From contig JALHMR010000033.1 in assembly GCA_022843945.1 (NCBI GenBank), positions 1 through 57,093 on the forward strand: a stretch of DNA of 57,093 bases, written 5' to 3'. The position numbers and the translations under genes were made by a program. Numbering within the stretch: the first letter of the stretch is position 1; each line of letters begins with the position of its first letter. Positions 33,208-56,518 of the stretch are shown in pieces. The notes beneath the pieces were generated by a model. That model was not told the DNA's origin. It did not search any database and saw only the letters and a program-made list of their open reading frames with translations. The stretch is from Rhodospirillaceae bacterium. GTDB taxonomy: Bacteria; Pseudomonadota; Alphaproteobacteria; CACIAM-22H2.

Positions 33208-34425
33208 ATGGACTCGCTGATCACGGCGGCGGCGCGGGCGCTGGCCACGGGCGACCTGCTCGGCGCGCTCAAACGCGTCGGCCTGCGCAACGATCCGCCG
33301 GCTCTGGCGCTGCGCGGCATCGCCATGGCGCAGCTCGGCGACCTGCCCAAAGCCAAGGAGCTGCTGCGCAAGGCCGCCGGCGCCTTCGGCCCAAAGGAGG
33401 CTGTATCGCGCGCGCGCTGTGTGGTGGCCGAGGCCGAGATCGCGCTGGTCTCGCGCGACCTCGGCTGGCCGGTGCAGCGGCTGGCGGCGGCGCGGGCCAC
33501 GCTCGAGACCCACGGCGACCGGCTCAACGCCGCGCATGCGCGCCATCTCGAGATCCGCCTGTGGCTGCTGATCGGCCGGCTTGACGAGGCGGAACGGGAG
33601 ATCGCCAAACTCGACCTCGTTCCCCTGCCACCCGCCTTGCGCGCCGCGCATGAGCTGGTGGTCGCCGGCATCGCGATCCGGCGCCTCAAGATCAAGACGG
33701 CACGCGACGCGCTCACCCGCGCAGCCAGAGCGGCACGCATCTCCGGCATTGCTGCGCTGGTCGCCGAGGTCGAGAGCGCCGTCGAAGCCCTGCAGACACC
33801 GGCGGCGCGACTTGTTGCCAGCGGCAAGGAACGTGCGCTGCGTCTCGACGATGTCGAGGCCCTGCTCGCCTCGAGCACCCTGATCGTCGACGCATGCCGC
33901 CATGTGGTGCGTCGCGGCGGCGCGATCGTCTCGCTGGCCACGCGACCGGTGCTCTTTGCCCTCGCCCGCTGTTTGGGCGAAGCCTGGCCCGGCGATGTGC
34001 CGCGCGACGTGCTGCTGGCCCGTACCTTCGGCGCCAGGCACGCCGATGAATCGCATCGCGCCCGGCTGCGCGTCGAGATCGGCCGGCTGCGCGCGACGCT
34101 GAAGCCATTGGCCGAGATCAGCGCCACGGAACGCGGTTTTGCGCTGACGCCAAAACGGGCGAAGAAAGTCGTGGTGCTGGGCCCACCGGTCGACACGGAG
34201 CATGCGGACGTGCTCGCCTTCCTCGCCGACGGTGAAGCCTGGTCGAGCTCGGCCCTGGCACTGGCGCTCGGCGCCAGCTCGCGCACGGTGCAGCGCGCTC
34301 TCGATGCACTGGCTGCAGCCAACAAGGTGCAGTCGCTGGGCCGTGGACGGGCGCAGCGCTGGCTCACACCACCGCCGGCATTCCCGACGGTATTGTTACT
34401 CCCGGGCCCGCTACCGGGGGACTAG
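33208..34425 (+). CDS. TPR and winged-helix DNA-binding regulator
   Basis: A 405-residue soluble protein. Residues about 1–200 are Ala/Leu-rich helical repeats of TPR type (ALRGIAMAQLGDLPKAKELLRKAAGAF; RLWLLIGRLDEAEREIAKLDL). The middle (about 210–320) contains a basic helical region resembling a transcription-factor winged helix with LARTFGARHADESHRARLRVEIGRLR. Near the C-terminus SSSALALALGASSRTVQRALDALAAANKVQSLGRGRAQRW is a clear helix-turn-helix. The divergent position suggests it regulates the DUF899 operon, and it reads into the beta-propeller gene downstream. Confidence 0.8.
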   Translation: MDSLITAAARALATGDLLGALKRVGLRNDPPALALRGIAMAQLGDLPKAKELLRKAAGAFGPKEAVSRARCVVAEAEIALVSRDLGWPVQRLAAARATLETHGDRLNAAHARHLEIRLWLLIGRLDEAEREIAKLDLVPLPPALRAAHELVVAGIAIRRLKIKTARDALTRAARAARISGIAALVAEVESAVEALQTPAARLVASGKERALRLDDVEALLASSTLIVDACRHVVRRGGAIVSLATRPVLFALARCLGEAWPGDVPRDVLLARTFGARHADESHRARLRVEIGRLRATLKPLAEISATERGFALTPKRAKKVVVLGPPVDTEHADVLAFLADGEAWSSSALALALGASSRTVQRALDALAAANKVQSLGRGRAQRWLTPPPAFPTVLLLPGPLPGD

Positions 34426-47079: not shown

Positions 47080-47790
47080 CTACCCGCGTCCCCCGCCAAA
47101 TCCCGTCCCCACAAAGAAAAATTCGGCTGATTCCTGCCGGCTCGAGGGCGGCTTGATCCGGCGGATGGTGGCAAAATGGCGCCGCAGCTCCGCCTGGAAC
47201 TGCTGCTCGCTGCCGCCCTGCAGCATCTTGGAGACGAAGGCCCCACCCGGCTTGAGGACTTCCACCGCCATGGCCAACGCCGCTTCGACCAGGTGCATGA
47301 TGCGCAGGTGATCGATATCCGTCTGTCCGCTGGCCGCCGCCGCCATGTCCGAGAGCACGACATCGACCGGCCCGCCCAGGGCCTTGCGGATCTGGGCCGG
47401 CGCCTCGTCCGACAGAAAATCGCCCACCAACTGGATGGCGCCCTGGATCGGCGGATCGATCGGCAGGAGATCGAGACCGACGACCTCGCCCCCGCCCTTC
47501 GCCCCGGCCCCGGTGCGCTGGACGGCGATCTGCGTCCAGCCGCCGGGCGCCGCGCCGAGATCGAGGACCCGTGCGCCGCGCTTGAGCAGGCGGAGCTTGT
47601 CGTCGATCTCGATCAGCTTGAAGGCGGCGCGCGAGCGGTAGCCCGCTTTCTTCGCCTCGGCGACATAGGGGTCGTTGAGCTGGCGCTCCAGCCAGAGCTT
47701 GGATGACAGGCTGCGGCCTTTTGCCGACGTCACCCGCTGCTTGAGACGGCGACCGCCGCCCCCCGGATTGCCCCCGGCCTTGCGGGTCAT
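47080..47790 (-). CDS. rlmE: 23S rRNA 2'-O-ribose methyltransferase RlmE
   Basis: RrmJ/FtsJ-family enzyme that methylates U2552 of 23S rRNA. It has the basic N-terminus (KLWLERQLNDPYVAEAKKAGYRSRAAFKLIEIDDK), the SAM site RVLDLGAAPGGWTQIAV and the catalytic DVVLSDMAAAASGQTDIDHLR, with KMLQGG containing the catalytic Lys. Length 236. ATG 47790 overlaps the ppx TGA as ATGA. It lies 80 bases before the guaB start. Confidence 0.94.
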   Translation of the reverse strand: MTRKAGGNPGGGGRRLKQRVTSAKGRSLSSKLWLERQLNDPYVAEAKKAGYRSRAAFKLIEIDDKLRLLKRGARVLDLGAAPGGWTQIAVQRTGAGAKGGGEVVGLDLLPIDPPIQGAIQLVGDFLSDEAPAQIRKALGGPVDVVLSDMAAAASGQTDIDHLRIMHLVEAALAMAVEVLKPGGAFVSKMLQGGSEQQFQAELRRHFATIRRIKPPSSRQESAEFFFVGTGFGGGRG

Positions 47791-48782
47791 CGCCCGGCAG
47801 CGACGCCGCTGCCCGCCTCGCGCATCAGGCCGAGCAGGATGCCTTCGCGCAGACCGCGATCGGCGACGCGCAGGCGGGGAACGGGCCAGACTTTCAGGAT
47901 GCCTTCGAGAATGGCGCAACCGGCCAACACAAGATCGGCACGTTCGCTGCCGATGCAGGGCTGGGCCGCGCGGCCGCTCCAGTCGAGTTCGCGGAGCTGC
48001 GCACAGATATCGCGGGCCTCCTCGAGGCTGAGTGACGAGCCGTCGACGCGCGAACGGTCATAGCGCTCCAGCCGCAGGCGAATTCCGGACAAGGTCGTCA
48101 CCGTGCCCGAGGTGCCGAGCATCTGGACCTGCCCGGTAGCCAGCTTGGCGCCGATATCGTGCGCGGCCTCGAAACAGGCCAGCCGGGCGGCCATATCGTC
48201 GACGATCTCCGTGTAGGCTTCGGCCGGCACGCGGTCGCCGCCGAGTTGCTCGGCGAGCACCACCACGCCCAGCCCGAGCGACACTGAATCGACGACCGTC
48301 CAGCTCTTCTCCGCGTCGTGCCGCAGCCAGGTGACCTCGGTGCTGCCGCCGCCGATATCGAACAGGATGGCATAGGGCAGCTGCGGGTCGAGCAGCGGCG
48401 CGCAGCCGGCCAGCGCCAGGCCGGCCTCCTCGCGCGGCTCGATGATCTCCAGCGACAGCCCGGTCTCGGCCGCCACGCGTGCCACGAAGGCGCCGCCGTT
48501 GCGCGCCCGCCGGCAGGCTTCGGTGGCGACGCCCCGGTAAAAGCCCACGCCTCGGCGCCGCAGCTTGCCCGCGCAGATGCGCAGCGCCTCCACCGTGCGG
48601 TCCATGGCCGGCATGGTCAGCTCGCCGGTCGTGGCCAGCTGCTCGCCGAGCCGCACGATGCGCGAGAACGCGTCGATGACGCGGAAGGATTCACCGGACG
48701 GCCTGGCTACCAGCAGGCGGCAATTGTTGGTGCCCAGATCGAGCGCGGCAAACACCGGACCGTCGCCGTTGCGCGACGGCAC
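47787..48782 (-). CDS. Ppx/GppA exopolyphosphatase-family phosphatase
   Basis: Actin-fold phosphatase acting on polyphosphate or pppGpp. Motifs: FAALDLGTNNCRLLVARP (phosphate 1), the middle EEAGLALAGCAPLL and AILFDIGGGSTEVTWL (phosphate 2), LGTSGTVTTLSG. The C-terminal HD-like domain of long Ppx enzymes is absent, so this is the short form of about 331 residues. I choose GTG 48782 because GGGAGG lies seven bases upstream and homology begins at the next residues. An open frame continues upstream to 49010 but is not conserved. Confidence 0.9.
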   Translation of the reverse strand: MPSRNGDGPVFAALDLGTNNCRLLVARPSGESFRVIDAFSRIVRLGEQLATTGELTMPAMDRTVEALRICAGKLRRRGVGFYRGVATEACRRARNGGAFVARVAAETGLSLEIIEPREEAGLALAGCAPLLDPQLPYAILFDIGGGSTEVTWLRHDAEKSWTVVDSVSLGLGVVVLAEQLGGDRVPAEAYTEIVDDMAARLACFEAAHDIGAKLATGQVQMLGTSGTVTTLSGIRLRLERYDRSRVDGSSLSLEEARDICAQLRELDWSGRAAQPCIGSERADLVLAGCAILEGILKVWPVPRLRVADRGLREGILLGLMREAGSGVAAGR

Positions 48783-48969
48783 GCCGTCGCCTCCCGCTCT
48801 CTGGAAGCCGGTATCGTGCACGACCCGAAGCCTCGCCGGCAGACACCGTGCCTTCCCCCGCTCCTGAAAGGATGTGGGAGGAATGGCGGCGCCCGCGTAT
48901 GGGTTACTCAAGGGGCATGTAACCACAGTCCTTCGCGGCTGCGAAGGCGGTTTGTCAGCACCCCGTTCT

Positions 48970-50727
48970 TCAGCGCCAGGGCAGGACGTCTTCCGGCAGC
49001 CGGCCGGCAAGCCGGTCGAGGGCGAGCATGACCAGGGTGATCACCCCAACGGCCGCCAGGGCCACGGCCGCGGCCGCGGAGACCAGGCCCGCTTCTTCCA
49101 GGCTGAAAAGGACCACGCCGAGCGTTTCGGTCCCGCGCGACCACAGCAAGGCCGAGACGGTGAGCTCGTTGAAGGCGATGAGAAAGGCCAGTAGCCCACC
49201 GGCGGCCATGGCCGGTGCCGCCGCCGGCGCCAGGATGTGGCGCAGCCGCTCCACCACCGTCGCGCCGCAGACGGACGCGGCTTCCTCGACCGAGGGGTCA
49301 AGCTGCGCCAGCGCGGCGGTGACCGGCTTCAAGGCGAGCGGCAGAAAGCGCGCCACGTAGGCGAAGATGATGATGGCGGGCGTGCCGTAAAGGCTGATCT
49401 CGATCACGGGCAGCGGCCTGAGAAAGAGCAGGATGCAGGCCAGCGCCAGCACCACGCCGGGAAGCGCGTAAGGAACCTCGAACGCTCCTTCGATAAGGGC
49501 CCGCCACCGGCTGGCCCGTCGCGCCAGGACGTAGCCGAGCGGCAGCGCCAGCAGCGACACCACGACGGCCGCAATGCCGGAGAAGACGAAGGAGTTCCAG
49601 AAGGCGCGCCCGGTCGCGGACTGGCGGATGAGCACCTCGATGAAATTGTCGAGCGTCAGCGTCTGCAGGCTGAGACCGACACCGTAGGTTGGGACGAGAG
49701 CGGCGGTCAGCAAGGACACCAGGGGAATGGCAAGGGTGACGACAATGATCAGGGCCATGGCCGCCTGCAGCCCGACAGCCACTCGCCCGGCCGGCCATAA
49801 CCCATCCAGCCCTGTCCCCGTCTCCAACCGCGCGTGCTCCGAAGCCGCAAGCCGGCGGGATATGAGCAGGCCGATCCCGGTCAGCACGATAAGCAGGAGG
49901 CTCACGGCCGCGGCGTCGCCGATCACCGACGGGCCCAGGCTCGACAGGCGGCGGTAGATCAGCGTCGGCAGGGTCAGGTAGTTGACCGGCAGGCCGAGCA
50001 GCGCCGGGATGCCGAAATTGCCGATCGCCGCGACGGAGCACAGCACCCCGGCGGCGATCAGGTGCCCCCGCAGCAGCGGCAGCACGATGCGCAGGATGAC
50101 GCCGGTCCGCGAGGCACCGTCGACCGAGGCCGCATCGACCAGTTCGCGCGGGATGCGGCGCAGGCCGGCGCGCAGCGTGACGAAGGCCAGCGGCGCATGA
50201 TGCAGGGCGAGCACGGCGACGATGCCGCCGGGCCCACGCAGCGGATTGGGCGTGCCCGGCAGCGGGGCCAGCCCCAGCGTGTGGAGCAACGGCGAGGACG
50301 GGCCGGTTGCCGTGATGAAGGCCAGGGCCACGACCTGCGGCGCCATCATCATCGACAGGACGAAGAGGAAGGAGAAGACCTTCCGACCGCGGACATCGGT
50401 CAGCGTCACGGCCAACGCCGCCCCGAGGCCGAGCACGACGGCCAGCAGCGCCGAGGCGATCCCCGTCTCCAGCGAATTGGCCAAGGCACGCAAGGCGGCG
50501 CGAGAGGTGATCTCCGCCAGCGCCGCATCGGGCATGAACTCCCCGGCCCGCGTGAGCGCCGCCAGGATCAGCCGGCCGGTGGGCAGCAGTGACAGGAGCA
50601 GCAGGCTCGCGGCCAGCACCACCACGAGCGGCCAGCCGTCACGCCAGATGACTCCGGTGACCCGTTGTGGAGCGCCGTCTGCAAGATCGCGCGCCGCCTC
50701 GACCCGTACGGCGCCGACCTCGCTCAC
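48970..50727 (-). CDS. Ferric-type ABC transporter permease (fused two-domain)
   Basis: A 585-residue inner-membrane protein with two fused permease domains (FbpB/SfuB type, 12 predicted spans). Each half has the EAA loop: IPRELVDAASVDGASRTGVILRIVLP and LDPSVEEAASVCGATVVERLRHILAP. Such permeases import ferric iron or phosphonates. The start (ATG 50727) overlaps the binding-protein stop as ATGA. No ATP-binding gene follows within the window, so the ATPase must be encoded elsewhere. The 187 bases between it and ppx are empty. Confidence 0.9.
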   Translation of the reverse strand: MSEVGAVRVEAARDLADGAPQRVTGVIWRDGWPLVVVLAASLLLLSLLPTGRLILAALTRAGEFMPDAALAEITSRAALRALANSLETGIASALLAVVLGLGAALAVTLTDVRGRKVFSFLFVLSMMMAPQVVALAFITATGPSSPLLHTLGLAPLPGTPNPLRGPGGIVAVLALHHAPLAFVTLRAGLRRIPRELVDAASVDGASRTGVILRIVLPLLRGHLIAAGVLCSVAAIGNFGIPALLGLPVNYLTLPTLIYRRLSSLGPSVIGDAAAVSLLLIVLTGIGLLISRRLAASEHARLETGTGLDGLWPAGRVAVGLQAAMALIIVVTLAIPLVSLLTAALVPTYGVGLSLQTLTLDNFIEVLIRQSATGRAFWNSFVFSGIAAVVVSLLALPLGYVLARRASRWRALIEGAFEVPYALPGVVLALACILLFLRPLPVIEISLYGTPAIIIFAYVARFLPLALKPVTAALAQLDPSVEEAASVCGATVVERLRHILAPAAAPAMAAGGLLAFLIAFNELTVSALLWSRGTETLGVVLFSLEEAGLVSAAAAVALAAVGVITLVMLALDRLAGRLPEDVLPWR

Positions 50728-51695
50728 TCGAAGATATCGCTGAAGCGCTTCTTGTTGGCGCTATCGCCGGCCAGGGCCGTGGCGGGGTCGAAGGGCATGA
50801 GCTTGATGGCGCTCCGCTCCGGATAGCCCGCCGGCAGCCCCACCTTGGGATGCGCCGGCACATAGCCCTGCCTGGCGGCCAGGCGCTGGCCGTCTTCCGA
50901 GAGCAAAAAGTCGATGAGCGCGCGTGCCGCCGCCGGATTGCGGGCCGTGGACAGGATGGCGACCGGCTCGCTCACCGCCGAGACGCCCTCGCTGGGAAAG
51001 ACGAACTCGACCGGCGCACCCTTGGCCTTCTCGCGAATGGGCATGAAGTCGACGATCATGCCGTAGAGTTTCTCGCCGCCGGCGACCTGCTTCAGCACAT
51101 CGCCGTTGCCGCCCGAGGCCAGCGCGCCGTTCTTGCGCAGCGCCTCGTAGTAGCTCCAGCCACCCGGCAGGCTGCCGCTCAGCGTGACGGTATGAATCAT
51201 CGCCGCGCCCGAGGCCAGCGGCGACGGCATCGCCACCAGGCCTTTCGCTTCCGGCCGGGTGAGATCGAGCCAGGAGGAGGGCTTCAGCGCCGCCTTGGTG
51301 TTGTAGACGATGCCGGTGGTAATGAGCTTGGTGCCGAACCACGTCTTGTCCTTGTCGTGGATGCCGGCCGGATAAGCCGATACGTCGGCCTTCTCGTGGG
51401 CCTGCAGGCGGCGTTCCTGCTTCAGGGCCTCCATGGTGACGCTGTCGGCGATCAGCAGGACGTCGGCCTGCGGCTGGCCGGCCTCGATCTCGGCGCGCAG
51501 CTTGGCCAGGACGCGCGGGGTCCCGTCGCGCACGAAGCTGACATCGACCCGCGGGTAGCGTGCCTTGAAGGCATCCAGGGTCTGCTGGGCGTCGGTCTGC
51601 GGCTGGCTGGTATAGAGAACCAGTTTGCCGTCCTGGGCGGCCGCCGGAACCGACAGCGCCATGAGGGCAGCAAGGGTCGCCAGGATCGATTTCAT
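50724..51695 (-). CDS. ABC transporter extracellular solute-binding protein (ferric/2-AEP type)
   Basis: A 323-residue periplasmic binding protein. Signal peptide MKSILATLAALMALSVPAAAQ, then KLVLYTSQPQTDAQQTLDAFKARYPRV, the FbpA-like beginning; GTPRVLAKLRAEIEAGQPQADVL and TGIVYNTKAALKPSSWLDLTRPEAKGLVAMPSP follow. A ferric or phosphonate ligand is likely by family. ATG 51695 has GGAG upstream; the long frame before it is not conserved. It is coupled to the permease gene. Confidence 0.9.
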   Translation of the reverse strand: MKSILATLAALMALSVPAAAQDGKLVLYTSQPQTDAQQTLDAFKARYPRVDVSFVRDGTPRVLAKLRAEIEAGQPQADVLLIADSVTMEALKQERRLQAHEKADVSAYPAGIHDKDKTWFGTKLITTGIVYNTKAALKPSSWLDLTRPEAKGLVAMPSPLASGAAMIHTVTLSGSLPGGWSYYEALRKNGALASGGNGDVLKQVAGGEKLYGMIVDFMPIREKAKGAPVEFVFPSEGVSAVSEPVAILSTARNPAAARALIDFLLSEDGQRLAARQGYVPAHPKVGLPAGYPERSAIKLMPFDPATALAGDSANKKRFSDIFE

Positions 51696-51816
51696 GGATG
51701 GCTCCGGTCGAGGATCGCGGACAGGGCGTCCGCCGGCGGACAGTAACGGGGGTGCATGACGCTCGCGTGAAACCGCCGAAAACCGGCCGGATAACGGCAG
51801 CATGTAACCATATCCC

Positions 51817-51840
51817 GTCACCCCCGCGAAAGCCGGTTCA
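51817..51840. repeat. Fragment of dispersed intergenic repeat
   Basis: GTCACCCCCGCGAAAGCCGG is a shortened copy of the GTCACCCCGGCGAAAGCC hairpin seen at 38171. The other half is missing. It lies in the 51696–51939 stretch, which holds no gene. Confidence 0.4.
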
Positions 51841-51939
51841 GGCCCCTTTTCCGCCCCTGCACAGGCGCTACACAAATCCGTCCGGTCTGTGCTAAAAGCC
51901 GGCCTCTCAAGCACCGGGCACCCGCCTTCGCGGCCCTGC

Positions 51940-52013
51940 TGGGGGATCGTCCAACGGTAGGACTCCAGACTCTGACTCTGGCTATCTAGGTTCGAATCCT
52001 AGTCCCCCAACCA
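51940..52013 (+). tRNA. tRNA-Gln (anticodon CTG)
   Basis: A 74-base cloverleaf with encoded CCA. Acceptor TGGGGGA (51940–51946) pairs with TCCCCCA (52003–52009). The D-arm contains AACGGTAGGA. The anticodon stem CCAGA/TCTGG encloses CTCTGAC, anticodon CTG reading CAG. The T-arm is CTAGG-TTCGAAT-CCTAG. It has U1–A72 like other glutamine tRNAs, but the discriminator base (52010) is A rather than the usual G. It lies 38 bases from the stop of the converging glnS. Confidence 0.97.
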
Positions 52014-52051
52014 GCCCTTCGCCGCTTCGCGGCTACCCGTTCTGACGATCC

Positions 52052-53764
52052 TCAACGCGGCTTGGCCGGCGTTCCAGGTTTGCCGCCGCCCTGCACCTTC
52101 GCCCAGGTGTCGCGCAACGCCACGGTGCGGTTGAAGACCAGGCGGCCACGCGTCGAATCCGGATCGCGGCAAAAATAGCCTTGGCGCTCGAACTGGAACG
52201 TCGCCTCGGCGTTGTTGGTCGCCAGCGACGGCTCGACCTGGGCCCCACTCAGGGTCTCCAGTGAATTCGGGTTGAGGTCGTCGAGCAGCTCGCCCTCCGC
52301 GCCTGGATCGGGGCGCGAGAACAGCGGGTTGTAGATGCGGATCTCCGCCGGAACGGCGTGCGCCGCGGATACCCAGTGCAGCGTCGACTGGACCTTGCGG
52401 CCATCGGGCGCATCGCCGCCGCGCGTCGCGGGATCGTAGGTGCAGCGCAGCTCCGTGATCGCGCCCGATGCATCCTTCGTCACGCTCCTGCACGTCAGCA
52501 GATAAGCGCCGCGCAGACGCACCTCGCGGCCAGGCGCCAGCCGGAAAAACTTCTTCGGCGGGTCTTCCATGAAATCGTCGCGCTCGATGTAGATCTCGCG
52601 GCTGAACGGCACTTTGCGCGCGCCCGCCGCCTCATTCTCCGGATGGTTGGCGATTTCGAACTCCTCGCTCTGCCCTTCCGGATAGTTCTCGATGACCAGC
52701 TTGAGCGGGCGCAGCACGGCCATGCACCGCGGCGCGCTCCTGTTCAGATGTTCACGCACCGTGTGCTCGAACATCGCCACCTCGATGATGCTGTTGGCGC
52801 GCGCCATGCCGATGCGGCGCACGAACTCGCGCAGGGCCTCGGGCGGAACGCCGCGCCGGCGCAGGCCCGCGAGGGTCGGCATGCGCGGATCGTCCCAGCC
52901 CTTCACGTGCTTCTTCTGCACCAGCTCGGTGAGGAAGCGCTTGGAAAGCACCATGTAGGTGATGTTGAGCCGTGCGAACTCGATCTGCCGCGGCCGCGAC
53001 GGGACCGGCAGGTTGTCGAGGAACCAGTCGTAGAGCGGCTGGTGGTCGGCGAATTCGAGCGTGCACAGCGAATGCGTGATGTGCTCGATAGCGTCCGACT
53101 GGCCATGCGCATAGTCGTAGGTCGGATAGATCGACCAGGCCGTGCCGGTACGCGGATGGGTGGCGTGCAGGATCCGGTAGAGCACCGGATCGCGCAGGTT
53201 CATGTTGCCGGCGGCCATGTCGATCTTCGCCCGCAGCACCCGCGCGCCGTTGGGGAACTCGCCGGCGCGCATGCGGCGGAAGAGGTCGAGATTCTCGTCG
53301 ACGGAGCGGTCACGGAACCGGCTGTGCCTGCCGGGCTCGGTCAGCGAGCCGCGCATCGCCCGCATCTCGTCGAGCGGCGTGTCGTCGACATAGGCCTTGC
53401 CGGCGCCGATCAGGTGCTCCGCCCATTCGTAGAGCTGCTCGAAGTAATCCGACGCATGATAGAGGTGCTTGCCCCAGTCGAAGCCGAGCCAGCGCACGTC
53501 GCGCTCGATGGCGTCGATGAACTCCTGCTCCTCCTTGGTCGGGTTGGTGTCGTCGAAGCGCAGGTGGCAGCGGCCACCGAACTCCTGCGCCACGCCGAAA
53601 TTGAGGCAGATCGACTTGGCGTGGCCGATATGCAGGTAGCCGTTGGGCTCCGGCGGAAAGCGGGTGACCACGGTCTGGTGGCGCCTGGCGGCCAGGTCCG
53701 CGTCGATGATCTCGCGGATGAAGTCGCGTCCGGCTTCCGGCGGCGCCGTCGTTTCGCTGGGCAT
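52052..53764 (-). CDS. glnS: Glutaminyl-tRNA synthetase
   Basis: Class I synthetase attaching Gln to tRNA-Gln. HIGH motif in [23 protein letters not shown] (residues 35–57) and the KMSKS equivalent VLSKRFL in [17 protein letters not shown]. The anticodon-binding beta-barrel follows ([44 protein letters not shown]), ending [19 protein letters not shown]. The 570-residue length and C-terminal barrels are those of bacterial GlnRS, not GluRS. Most alphaproteobacteria lack this enzyme and make Gln-tRNA by GatCAB transamidation. The cognate tRNA gene lies beside it. Confidence 0.96.
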
Positions 53765-53976
53765 TGGGGTCCTTAAGAGGCTGGTCGCGGTCGCCGGAGA
53801 CGCTGGGGCTGGCTGTATGTGCCAAATCCCGGGGCCCCCGCCAAGGCCCTCGCCCGCTGGTCAGGGTGGCCGGCCACCGCGCCCGGGAACAGGGGACGGG
53901 CTTGGCCGTTTCTTGGGAGGTACCGCCCTCACCGCAGGCCGCTACCGCCCCCATCTCCTTTTCCAGAGGTGTTTTC

Positions 53977-54174
53977 ATGGCCAATCCGAAGAAACCGCAG
54001 GTCCGTCCCGATCCGCTGCCGGAGGACAAGTCTGAAAACCAGATCGACCAGGAGCGTGCGGATTCGGGTCCGGCCAGCGATCCACCGCCGATGGGTGGCT
54101 CGACCGCCGGCGGCGGGCCGGACAGCAAGAAAAGCCCGCCGCCCAAGCCGACAAAATCCGACTCCGCCTCGTGA
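53977..54174 (+). CDS. Small disordered protein
   Basis: A 65-residue, Pro/Lys/Ser/Gly-rich protein without hydrophobic segments (ANPKKPQVRPDPLPEDKSENQ, GGPDSKKSPPPKPTKSDSAS). AGAGG stands eight bases before ATG 53977, so translation is credible. No function is suggested. An intrinsic terminator follows at 54271. The 53765–53976 gap before it shows nothing else. Confidence 0.6.
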   Translation: MANPKKPQVRPDPLPEDKSENQIDQERADSGPASDPPPMGGSTAGGGPDSKKSPPPKPTKSDSAS

Positions 54175-54353
54175 CCTTCGAAGCCCCGGGCCGCACGCCG
54201 AGTTATGCCCCGGGGGTAAATCCGTTCGCCCTGGCGGGCCAGACCGCGCAGGCGATCCTGCTGTGGAGCTACGCCGCGCCCTTCCTGGGCGCGGCGTCCT
54301 TTTTTCTTGTCCCGCCCCTGTGGATCGCCGCGCTCTCGCTGGGCCGCCGTTGA
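54171..54353 (+). CDS. Possible small membrane protein
   Basis: A 60-codon frame starting with GTG that overlaps the previous TGA (GTGA). The product would have two hydrophobic stretches (LAGQTAQAILLWSYAAPFLGAASFFLVPPLW and IAALSL). However, an excellent terminator hairpin lies inside it and itself encodes the YAAPFLGAAS segment. The frame may be accidental, so it is listed with low confidence. Confidence 0.35.
   Translation: MTFEAPGRTPSYAPGVNPFALAGQTAQAILLWSYAAPFLGAASFFLVPPLWIAALSLGRR
54271..54305 (+). terminator. Rho-independent terminator
   Basis: Perfect 11-base stem ACGCCGCGCCC (54271–54281) / GGGCGCGGCGT (54287–54297), loop TTCCT, then CC and six T (54300–54305). It is suitably placed to end transcription of the small gene at 53977, and it overlaps the doubtful frame at 54171. 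Confidence 0.7.
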
Positions 54354-54407
54354 GTGTGCTAGACAGCCCCAGCGGCTCCCGCGCGGGAGTCGGCGATGGG
54401 GGAATCG

Positions 54408-54824
54408 ATGGAACGGTTTGTACGGCGGGCTGTGCTCGCCTTCGTGGTGGTGGCGCTTGCGGCCTGCGCGGGCAGCGGCAGCGATCAGTCGCCTTCTCCG
54501 GCCAAATCGTTCTTCGTTTTCTTCGCCGTCGACAGCGCCGAGTTGATGCCTGAGGCGAACGAGGTCATCGATCGGATTGCCGCCGAGGCGCGGCGCATCC
54601 AGGCCACCGGCGTGGGCATCGTCGGCTATGCCAGCCCGGCCGGCACCCCGTCCCATAACCTGCGCCTGTCCGATCAGCGGGCCACGGCCGTCGAGGTGGC
54701 GCTGCTGTCGCGCGGCGTGCCGCGGGCGATCCTGGTGCGCACCCATCACGGCGCCACGCCCGTGATCGGCCCGGAAATCGAAGGCCAGCGCGTCGAGGTC
54801 GTCGTCTCGCGCGAGCAGCGCTGA
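54408..54824 (+). CDS. OmpA-like peptidoglycan-associated lipoprotein
   Basis: A 138-residue lipoprotein. The signal peptide ends in the lipobox LAAC (VALAACAGSGS), so the mature protein is attached to the membrane by its N-terminal Cys. The OmpA-C-like domain follows: FFVFFAVDSAELMPEANEVIDRIAAEARR, IVGYASPAGTPSHNLRLSDQRATAVEVALLSRGV and a C-terminal QRVEVVVSREQR. It would bind peptidoglycan. ATG 54408 has GGGGGA upstream; ATG 54396 in the same frame is possible. It runs towards pssA. Confidence 0.87.
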   Translation: MERFVRRAVLAFVVVALAACAGSGSDQSPSPAKSFFVFFAVDSAELMPEANEVIDRIAAEARRIQATGVGIVGYASPAGTPSHNLRLSDQRATAVEVALLSRGVPRAILVRTHHGATPVIGPEIEGQRVEVVVSREQR

Positions 54825-54830
54825 GCGTTC

Positions 54831-55703
54831 CTAGGCTGTCGTCGTCGTATCCGAGCGGGAATTCGGCGTCACCTCGCCTGACGCCGCCGGCAACGCCGGC
54901 GCGGGCAGCGGCTCGTCGTCGATCACCGCGCGCCGCGCCTGGGCCTGCGACCACACCGAGATCGGGATGCTGGCCAGGTAGAGCGCGCCGCCGATCACGA
55001 AAGTGAGGAACGGCTCGCTGGCGATCGCCGCGACGAGAAGGGCGGAGAGCAGCAGGATCGGCAGCGCCATCGACGGGGTGAGCTTCACCTTCTTGGTCGA
55101 GAAGGTCGGGATGCGGCTCACCATCAGCGCCGCGACGCCGAGCAGCACGACGGCGTTGAGCAAGGGCCGATCGAAGAGACCCGGCCCGAACTGGATCGTC
55201 CCCATCATCGGCAGCAGGCCGAGGAAAGCGCCCATCGGCGCCGGCACGCCGACGAAATAAGCCCCGGCCCAGGGCGGCGGGTTGGGATCGCCGATCATCG
55301 TGTTGAAGCGCGCCAGGCGCAGCGCGCAGCACACGGCGAAGACCAGGCAGAAAGCCCAGCCGAGGCCGCCCCACTGGTGCAGCGTGGCCAGGTAAACGAG
55401 CATCGCCGGCACCGCGCCGAAGCACAGGAAGTCCGACAGGGAGTCGAGCTCCGCGCCAAATTTCGAGGTGCCGTTCAGCAGGCGCGCCAGCCGGCCATCG
55501 AGCACGTCGAGGATGGCGGCCACGAGAATGGCGAAGATCGCCAGGTCCCAGCGGCCCATGAGGCCGAAGCGCAGGCCGGTGAAGCCGGCGCACAACGCCA
55601 GCACGGTCAGCACGTTGGGAATGAGCCGGTTGATCGTTGGCGGCTCGAAGCGCGGCCGGCGCAGGCGCAGCCGGTCGCGGCGGAAACGGGCGGGTCCGAA
55701 CAT
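54831..55703 (-). CDS. pssA: CDP-diacylglycerol–serine O-phosphatidyltransferase
   Basis: Membrane enzyme making phosphatidylserine from CDP-diacylglycerol and serine. The CDP-alcohol phosphotransferase motif is complete: LDVLDGRLARLLNGTSKFGAELDSLSDFLCFG (D-G-x2-A-R-x8-G-x3-D-x3-D). Further hydrophobic segments give about eight spans. The 290-residue protein includes a soluble Arg-rich N-terminus (FRRDRLRLRRPRFEPP). It starts inside the psd stop (one-base overlap at 55703), so the two steps to phosphatidylethanolamine are coupled. Confidence 0.95.
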   Translation of the reverse strand: MFGPARFRRDRLRLRRPRFEPPTINRLIPNVLTVLALCAGFTGLRFGLMGRWDLAIFAILVAAILDVLDGRLARLLNGTSKFGAELDSLSDFLCFGAVPAMLVYLATLHQWGGLGWAFCLVFAVCCALRLARFNTMIGDPNPPPWAGAYFVGVPAPMGAFLGLLPMMGTIQFGPGLFDRPLLNAVVLLGVAALMVSRIPTFSTKKVKLTPSMALPILLLSALLVAAIASEPFLTFVIGGALYLASIPISVWSQAQARRAVIDDEPLPAPALPAASGEVTPNSRSDTTTTA

Positions 55704-56398
55704 CAGCGCACTTCTCCCGACCGCGTCCCCTCCTGCGACTGGAGGTCCGCGATCACGGTTTCACCGGCAATGGCACGCTGGCCGACGCTGACCAGCGGCG
55801 CCACGCCCGGCGGCAGATAGACGTCGACACGGCTGCCGAAACGGATCAGGCCGTAGCGCTCGCCGGCGCGCGCGACCTGCCCGAGCTTCAGCGTGCATTT
55901 GATGCGCCGCGCGATGAGGCCGGCGATCTGCACCACGGCAAGGTCGCGGCCGTCGTTCAACGTCAGGCGGACCGACATGCGCTCGTTGTCTTCGCTCGCC
56001 TTGTCGAGGGCGGCGTTAACGAAGGCGCCCGGCCGATAGTCCAGCGCGCTGACCGTGCCGTCGGCCGGCACGCGCTGAATATGCACGTCGAAGATATTCA
56101 GGAAGATGCTGACCCGCGTGAGCGGTGTCGTGCCCATACCCAGCTCGGCCGGCGGCGGCGCCTCGACGATCAGACTGACCTCGCCATCGGCCGGGCTCAT
56201 CACCAGGCCAGACCGGACCGGCGTCACGCGGTCGGGGTCGCGGAAGAAGTAGGCCATCCACAGCGTGACAATCACACCGAGGATACCGAGCGGCATCCAC
56301 AGCCATCCGAGGAGCAGCGTGACCAACGCGCTGCCCAGCACGAAGGGGGTCCCCTCGGGGTGAAGGCGCGTCGAAACGGAACGGAACATCGGATGCAT
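55703..56398 (-). CDS. psd: Phosphatidylserine decarboxylase (short/PSD-A type)
   Basis: Makes phosphatidylethanolamine by decarboxylating phosphatidylserine. Short form of 231 residues: an N-terminal membrane segment ([39 protein letters not shown]), [33 protein letters not shown], and the self-cleavage site in [13 protein letters not shown], where the Ser becomes the pyruvoyl group. ATG 56398 is used; a longer frame to 56461 is not conserved. It precedes and overlaps pssA. Confidence 0.95.
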
Positions 56399-56518
56399 GT
56401 CTAACCCAATCTGCGGTATCCCAAGGCGGCGCAGTCTACTCACCGCCAAGCTTCGGGTCACGCGATAGAAACGCGTGGCGGCGCGACTTGATCCCGGCCG
56501 CTACCGAGATATGGGTAC

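What the first reader, a model, noticed from the sequence alone, without database searches (positions are those of the whole stretch)
51940..53764. glnS and tRNA-Gln(CTG) side by side in an alphaproteobacterium
GlnRS is unusual in Alphaproteobacteria, which normally charge tRNA-Gln through GluRS and GatCAB. Here a full GlnRS gene converges with a tRNA-Gln gene 38 bases away. The pair could have been acquired together as an orthogonal set or could be a surviving direct route.
Basis: partly seen in the sequence, partly recalled or inferred. Interest (0 to 1): 0.65.

Follow-up and report, generated by a model that had tools for sequence, protein, structure and literature searches.

The report
Extra glutamine-charging enzyme beside its tRNA
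This bacterium carries a complete direct enzyme for loading glutamine onto tRNA on top of the usual two-step route, and the neighbouring tRNA gene is the bacterium's own old one rather than part of an imported pair; the situation is uncommon but already described for related bacteria.

Summary
A full glnS (52052-53764, minus) converges on tRNA-Gln(CTG) (51940-52013, plus) with 38 bases between. The genome also holds GluRS1, GluRS2, a GluQRS-like protein, gatCAB and tRNA-Gln(TTG), and no AsnRS over the cut-off. That is the "two GluRS + GlnRS + GatCAB" class described in 2014.

GlnRS is a minority trait: 56 of 385 Alphaproteobacteria, 4 of 23 genomes of the window's family. The two genes were not acquired together. 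The tRNA has ppx close by in 47 of 67 loci, with or without glnS. In the same-genus genome other sequence follows the tRNA, and glnS is on another contig. In two further family members glnS lies elsewhere. glnS is under purifying selection. Gain versus old retention in this family is undecided.

Two side observations stay open. glnS lies within 2 kb of tRNA-Gln(CTG) more often than chance (5 of 133 other loci, about 0.12 expected). tRNA-Gln(UUG) more often has A37 where glnS is present (exploratory). Overall: a new member of a known kind, modest interest.

The parts
51940..52013 (+). tRNA-Gln(CTG); U1:A72, G2:C71, G3:C70, A73, encoded CCA
52014..52051 (.). 38-base gap between the 3' ends of the two convergent genes; no terminator-like site listed here and no fold beyond chance
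52052..53764 (-). glnS, glutaminyl-tRNA synthetase, 570 aa
50724..51914 (-). ABC transporter solute-binding protein; among the family loci read, found near the tRNA only in the window's genus (G000, G022)
48970..50727 (-). ABC transporter permease, same insertion
47787..49010 (-). ppx (Ppx/GppA); frequent neighbour of tRNA-Gln(CTG) across the class; the listed TTG start is probably too early
54396..54824 (+). OmpA-domain protein, lies with glnS before pssA in G000 and G022
54831..55703 (-). pssA (CDP-alcohol phosphatidyltransferase), far end of the variable region
55703..56461 (-). psd (phosphatidylserine decarboxylase)

Best explanation
glnS here is an ordinary, working GlnRS gene of a type that circulates among Alphaproteobacteria. 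It entered, or was kept in, the window's genus in the variable stretch between the native tRNA-Gln(CTG) and pssA. The enzyme most likely makes Gln-tRNA(Gln) directly from both native tRNA-Gln isoacceptors. GluRS2 (and perhaps GluRS1) with GatCAB can make the same product in two steps, and GatCAB must stay because Asn-tRNA(Asn) also depends on it. Shown: the genes, conserved motifs, purifying selection, native location of the tRNA, no AsnRS over the cut-off. Inferred: charging activity, the share of each route, and the need for GatCAB on the Asn side.
For: GlnRS domain set and score; the closest solved chains are GlnRS, first 5bnz at 767.5 bits. HIGH, SKR and THSLCTLEF are present (their roles are recalled). 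pN/pS against the same-genus gene is 0.185, lower than for pssA 0.242, psd 0.276 and ppx 0.336. gatC, gatA and gatB lie together at G000:C9, each over a curated cut-off. GluRS1 has HIGG and GluRS2 has HVGN. asnS has no match over the cut-off. tRNA-Gln(CTG) has ppx in the locus held (about 1.5 kb each side) in 47 of 67 loci regardless of glnS: 17 of 21 in the family, 30 of 46 outside it. The order is the same in glnS-less family members. gatB was found in 56 of 58 glnS+ genomes; the two misses, G086 and G333, are 68% and 86% complete. The acceptor-stem pairs U1:A72 and G2:C71 are in 81 of 81 tRNA-Gln(CTG) sequences read and G3:C70 in 80 of 81, with or without glnS.
Against: No expression or charging data exist. 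Both tRNA-Gln genes here have A73, while G73 is the listed bacterial determinant (PMC9976931, passages read). Dasgupta and Basu suggest that the patchy GlnRS of GluRS2-bearing epsilonproteobacteria, and of lone members of some other phyla, may be non-functional (PMC3927822 section 17). 16 of the 58 glnS+ genomes gave no tRNA match in the CTG search, so their tRNAs are not in the counts.
Confidence: 0.75

Rival explanations
1. Surviving ancestral direct route: glnS was already beside tRNA-Gln(CTG)/ppx in an older alphaproteobacterial ancestor and was lost or moved in most descendants.
For: glnS lies on the 3' side of tRNA-Gln(CTG), convergent, also in G082 (1605 bp) and G101 (1849 bp), of other families, both in the ppx-rlmE-guaB block. 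In the GatB tree G082 and G078 fall in one 11-row set with the nine family rows used (97), G082 beside G010, G009 and G008 (80). One clade for the family's four GlnRS is not rejected (AU p 0.069), nor window+G022+G082 (0.087), nor the family's four plus G082 (0.077).
Against: Best trees put window+G022 with G115 (family f94) and then G355 (f30), and G010+G008 elsewhere. Family plus G082 plus G078 as one clade is rejected (p 0.021). Intervening genes differ: an MFS gene in G082, a GGACT gene and an unknown in G101. No glnS over the cut-off in 19 of 23 family genomes.
Confidence: 0.25
2. The pair was acquired together as an orthogonal GlnRS/tRNA set.
For: 38-base adjacency. In one relative, L089, the adjacent tRNA-Gln(CTG) has a best identity of 78% to the 61 distinct CTG sequences read, each of which has another match of at least 81%.
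Against: In the window the tRNA is 100% identical in G022 and 93% identical to those of several glnS-less family members, and sits in the ppx neighbourhood. G022 does not show the direct adjacency.
Confidence: 0.03
3. Division of labour: GlnRS serves mainly tRNA-Gln(CUG) and the GluRS2/GatCAB route serves tRNA-Gln(UUG).
For: Among the 16 tRNA genes in the flanks of 133 glnS loci, 5 are Gln(CTG) and none is Gln(TTG). Differing tRNA preferences of GluRS1 and GluRS2 are described for Acidithiobacillus (PMC9976931 passages).
Against: In the window's genome the UUG tRNA has A37 and U38, closer to the listed determinants than the CUG tRNA with C38. No charging data.
Confidence: 0.08
4. glnS is an unused relic or a recent arrival without function.
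For: GluRS2 and GatCAB are present and could suffice; patchy distribution.
Against: Full length, no stops, pN/pS 0.185 against a homologue with pS 0.525.
Confidence: 0.06

Closest known systems
Alphaproteobacteria with two GluRS, GlnRS and GatCAB (class '2|+|+', two Mesorhizobium in Dasgupta and Basu 2014, PMC3927822)
   Same: Same gene set: GluRS1 with H-x-G-G, GluRS2 with H-x-G-N, GlnRS and gatCAB.
   Different: A different lineage, as far as the tools show; here glnS lies beside a native tRNA-Gln(CTG) gene.
Bacterial GlnRS (TIGR00440; nearest solved chain by sequence 5bnz)
   Same: Full domain set and motifs.
   Different: None of substance; the best NCBIfam model is the GlnRS/YqeY fusion but no YqeY domain is present here.
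GlnRS of Desertibaculum subflavum (L068; the translated stretch is identical to that of G115)
   Same: Nearest lineage outside the family in the careful tree (96/82).
   Different: No tRNA gene in its 6,089-base locus.

Membership tests
GlnRS | Score over curated cut-off of TIGR00440 | tested here: met
   723.8 against 425.8 bits
GlnRS | Catalytic plus GlnRS-type anticodon-binding domains | tested here: met
   PF00749, PF03950, PF20974
GlnRS | Glutaminylates tRNA-Gln | not testable with these tools
   needs the enzyme
GlnRS/YqeY fusion | C-terminal YqeY domain | tested here: not met
   570 aa, profile matched to position 560 of 769; no further Pfam domain
2|+|+ class (Dasgupta and Basu) | GluRS1 with H-x-G-G and GluRS2 with H-x-G-N motif | tested here: met
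   HIGG and HVGN; both over the TIGR00464 cut-off
2|+|+ class (Dasgupta and Basu) | gatA, gatB, gatC all present | tested here: met
Horizontally imported synthetase/tRNA pair | tRNA foreign to the genome and its relatives | tested here: not met
   native location and sequence
Horizontally imported synthetase/tRNA pair | Pairing kept in sister genomes that have the synthetase | tested here: not met
   G022: other sequence after the tRNA, contig gap not closed; G010 and G008: glnS elsewhere

The most novel reading that the evidence does not exclude
glnS is drawn to, or selected to lie near, the native tRNA-Gln(CTG) gene in unrelated bacteria (for instance by homologous recombination anchored on the tRNA of an incoming glnS segment), and its presence then shapes the other isoacceptor, holding position 37 of tRNA-Gln(UUG) as A, whereas lineages without GlnRS drift to G37. 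The window's family would show the steps of a switch from the indirect to the direct route: GluRS2 kept beside GlnRS in one genus, GluRS2 not found beside GlnRS in another.
Probability: 0.15. Interest if true: 0.55.

Novelty: new member of a known kind. Interest (0 to 1): 0.3.

Why it matters
It adds a clear case of redundant direct and indirect glutamine charging in one genome and shows that a synthetase and its tRNA can end up side by side without being acquired together. If the tRNA-linked placement and the A37 link hold, they would give a natural series for studying how bacteria change from the indirect to the direct route.

Tried and rejected
Rejected: co-acquisition of the pair, on synteny.

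Tried and negative: a link between glnS and the discriminator base of tRNA-Gln(CTG). A73 in 8 of 39 glnS+ and 7 of 42 glnS- sequences. A leftover tRNA fragment, as an island would leave: no repeat of 11 bases or more on the tRNA's own strand elsewhere in the window, and a single 11-base match on the other strand at 34416. No promoter-like site in 51700-54400, no terminator-like site in the 38-base gap, and a fold of that stretch not beyond chance (z -1.41). The order-level search gave only the same 23 genomes as the family.

Undecided: one or more origins of GlnRS in the family. The AU test did reject one clade for family f30 (p 0.015), so a transfer between families is supported; that group was chosen after the tree was seen.

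Weak points of the A37 result: it was noticed after looking. No phylogenetic correction was made, because no marker was fetched for most glnS- genomes. 5 of 79 loci gave no tRNA-Gln and were dropped. Genomes with several TTG copies (G101, G355) were counted as having A37 if one copy has it; in G101 that copy lacks an encoded CCA, and counting G101 as G37 would give 24 of 33. The family figures are rounded from family averages. In the TTG search 9 of 80 genomes had no match, and not every match was fetched.

Limits of the nearness count: the 80 genome-contig loci are the best 80 of at least 588 relatives, with flanks of up to 2.5 kb; the 57 class loci have longer flanks, many cut by contig ends. 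Four duplicate loci were removed and the window's own locus was not counted.

The 209-base tail in G022 that I read as a polysaccharide pyruvyl transferase fragment was not scanned against a library.

Papers: six searches on GlnRS, GatCAB, tRNA-Gln and Alphaproteobacteria listed no paper whose title or abstract start shows this adjacency. Only PMC3927822 (abstract, outline, passages, sections 3, 6, 13, 15, 17, 18) and PMC9976931 (passages) were opened; the others were seen as listings. The library is partial, so absence from print is not shown.

Full report
What is there. The window holds one tRNA gene, tRNA-Gln with anticodon CTG at 51940-52013 plus, and a 570-codon glnS at 52052-53764 minus. 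The genes converge with 38 bases between them. The protein passes the glnS cut-off by a wide margin (723.8 against 425.8 bits), has the GlnRS domain set, and is closest among solved chains to the GlnRS entry 5bnz. Its best NCBIfam model is a GlnRS/YqeY fusion, but the YqeY part is absent.

The rest of the machinery. The genome has four tRNA-synt_1c proteins: this GlnRS, a GluRS with motif HIGG (GluRS1 type), a GluRS with motif HVGN (GluRS2 type) and a shorter one that I take for GluQRS from its 282-codon frame. gatC, gatA and gatB lie together at G000:C9. No AsnRS passes its cut-off; the best match is 107 bits in a 626-codon frame, which I take for AspRS. tRNA-Gln(TTG) is elsewhere in the genome. 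The motif rule is that of Dasgupta and Basu 2014 (PMC3927822; abstract, passages and sections 3, 6, 13, 15, 17, 18 read). They count 6 of 69 Alphaproteobacteria with GlnRS, two of them (Mesorhizobium) with GluRS2 as well. This genome is one more of that "2|+|+" class.

Distribution. Over the glnS cut-off: 4 of 23 genomes of the family (G000, G022, G008, G010), 3 of 14 among high-quality ones. With a strict protein search: 56 of 385 Alphaproteobacteria, 51 of 315 high-quality ones, 40 of 277 genera. Several other families have it in two to four sampled members, but families f68 and f82 also have sampled members without it. gatB was found in 62 of 64 genomes searched and 57 of 57 high-quality ones; of the 58 glnS+ genomes among them it was found in 56, the misses being 68% and 86% complete.

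The tRNA is native. In the family, tRNA-Gln(CTG) lies next to ppx, followed by rlmE, guaB, rsmB and guaA; on the other side, where the contig reaches far enough and pssA was found, come variable genes and then pssA-psd. This holds in glnS-less genomes such as G015, G018 and G009, and in G010, whose glnS is elsewhere. Across the class 47 of 67 loci with usable flank have ppx within about 1.5 kb: 17 of 21 in the family and 30 of 46 outside it. G000 and G022 count as misses because an ABC permease and a binding protein lie between. The window's tRNA is 100% identical to that of G022 and 93% to those of several glnS-less relatives. In G022, 209 bases follow the tRNA to its contig end and do not lead into glnS; one frame reads like a polysaccharide pyruvyl transferase (my reading, not scanned). 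glnS-ompA-pssA-psd is on another contig. Co-acquisition is therefore excluded for the window, and direct adjacency is not seen in the one other genome of the genus.

History of glnS. In the GlnRS tree the window and G022 group with G115, whose translated GlnRS stretch is identical to that of Desertibaculum subflavum (96/82), and then G355 (96/93). G010 and G008 of the same family fall elsewhere. One clade for the four is not rejected (p 0.069), nor window, G022 and G082 (0.087), nor the four plus G082 (0.077); with G082 and G078 it is (0.021). In the GatB tree the nine family rows used, G082 and G078 form one set (97). One clade for family f30 is rejected (0.015; group chosen after the tree was seen), so transfer between families does occur. 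glnS was probably already in the genus ancestor: its divergence between G000 and G022 (83.4% amino-acid identity) is like that of pssA (80.1%), psd (76.6%) and ppx (75.2%), with pN/pS 0.185, the lowest of the four.

Nearness to the tRNA elsewhere. Among 133 distinct other glnS loci with 1.02 Mb of flank there are 16 tRNA genes, 5 of them Gln(CTG), all 5 within 2 kb, where 0.12 would be expected at one gene per 4 Mb (binomial 2e-5 at 1/44, 6e-4 at 2/44). They are G082 (1605 bp, convergent), G101 (1849 bp, convergent), L089 (65 bp, same strand), L094 (Actinobacteria MAG, 233 bp, same strand, tRNA-Glu between) and L116 (Chloroflexi MAG, 1200 bp, same strand). The other 128 loci have none in the flank held. 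In G082, G101 and L089 ppx and/or rlmE-guaB are close by, as in the window's family. The L089 tRNA itself is unlike the 61 distinct alphaproteobacterial copies read (best 78%; each of those has another match of at least 81%), so there co-acquisition remains possible. An insertion-prone region 3' of the tRNA, an old shared location, or selection could each give the pattern.

tRNA features. U1:A72 and G2:C71 are in all 81 tRNA-Gln(CTG) sequences read, and G3:C70 in 80 of 81, with or without glnS; A73 does not track glnS (8 of 39 against 7 of 42). 16 of 58 glnS+ and 17 of 58 glnS- genomes gave no match in the CTG searches and are not in these counts. For tRNA-Gln(UUG), 25 of 33 glnS+ genomes have a copy with A37 against 13 of 38 glnS- genomes (Fisher p 0.0007; rounded family averages 16 of 22 against 10 of 26, p 0.023). 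Within the family, glnS-less G005, G006 and G009 also have A37. A37 is a listed bacterial glutamine determinant (PMC9976931, passages read), but G37 is compatible with Thermus GlnRS (PMC3927822 section 18). This result is exploratory and not corrected for descent.

GluRS2 in the family. G000 and G022 keep GluRS2. In G010, with GlnRS, only a GluRS1-type gene and a short one were found. G008 shows the same number of genes but was not classified. G009, of the same genus as G010 and without glnS, also shows only GluRS1 and a short one, so missing sequence cannot be excluded.

Verdict. A real, working-looking GlnRS beside a native tRNA gene, in a genome that keeps the whole indirect route; a new member of a described class. 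The pair as such is not an imported set.

Noticed in passing
G000:C3:133296-133368 minus (L149, L220), outside the window: A tRNA-like gene reported as 'tRNA-???' with a four-base anticodon (tctg) beside a second tRNA-Arg(CCG); the reading frame that follows looks like a phage DUF5131 protein (my reading, not scanned), so perhaps a prophage tRNA pair.
   Followed up: no
L089:2363-2436: tRNA-Gln(CTG) 65 bases upstream of glnS on the same strand, unlike the alphaproteobacterial copies read; candidate for a co-acquired GlnRS/tRNA pair.
   Followed up: partly
L094:2193-4165: tRNA-Gln(CTG), tRNA-Glu(CTC) and glnS in a row on one strand in an actinobacterial MAG whose GlnRS groups with alphaproteobacterial ones in the quick tree.
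   Followed up: partly
tRNA-Gln(TTG) loci among L424-L488: Position 37 is A more often in glnS+ genomes and G more often in glnS- genomes.
   Followed up: partly
L159:3042-3590: A 182-codon frame that looks HNH-like (my reading, not scanned) lies between gatA and gatB in the window's genome.
   Followed up: no
window 48970-51914: ABC permease and binding protein between ppx and tRNA-Gln(CTG), among the family loci read only in the window's genus; the two frames scanned are not an ATPase.
   Followed up: partly
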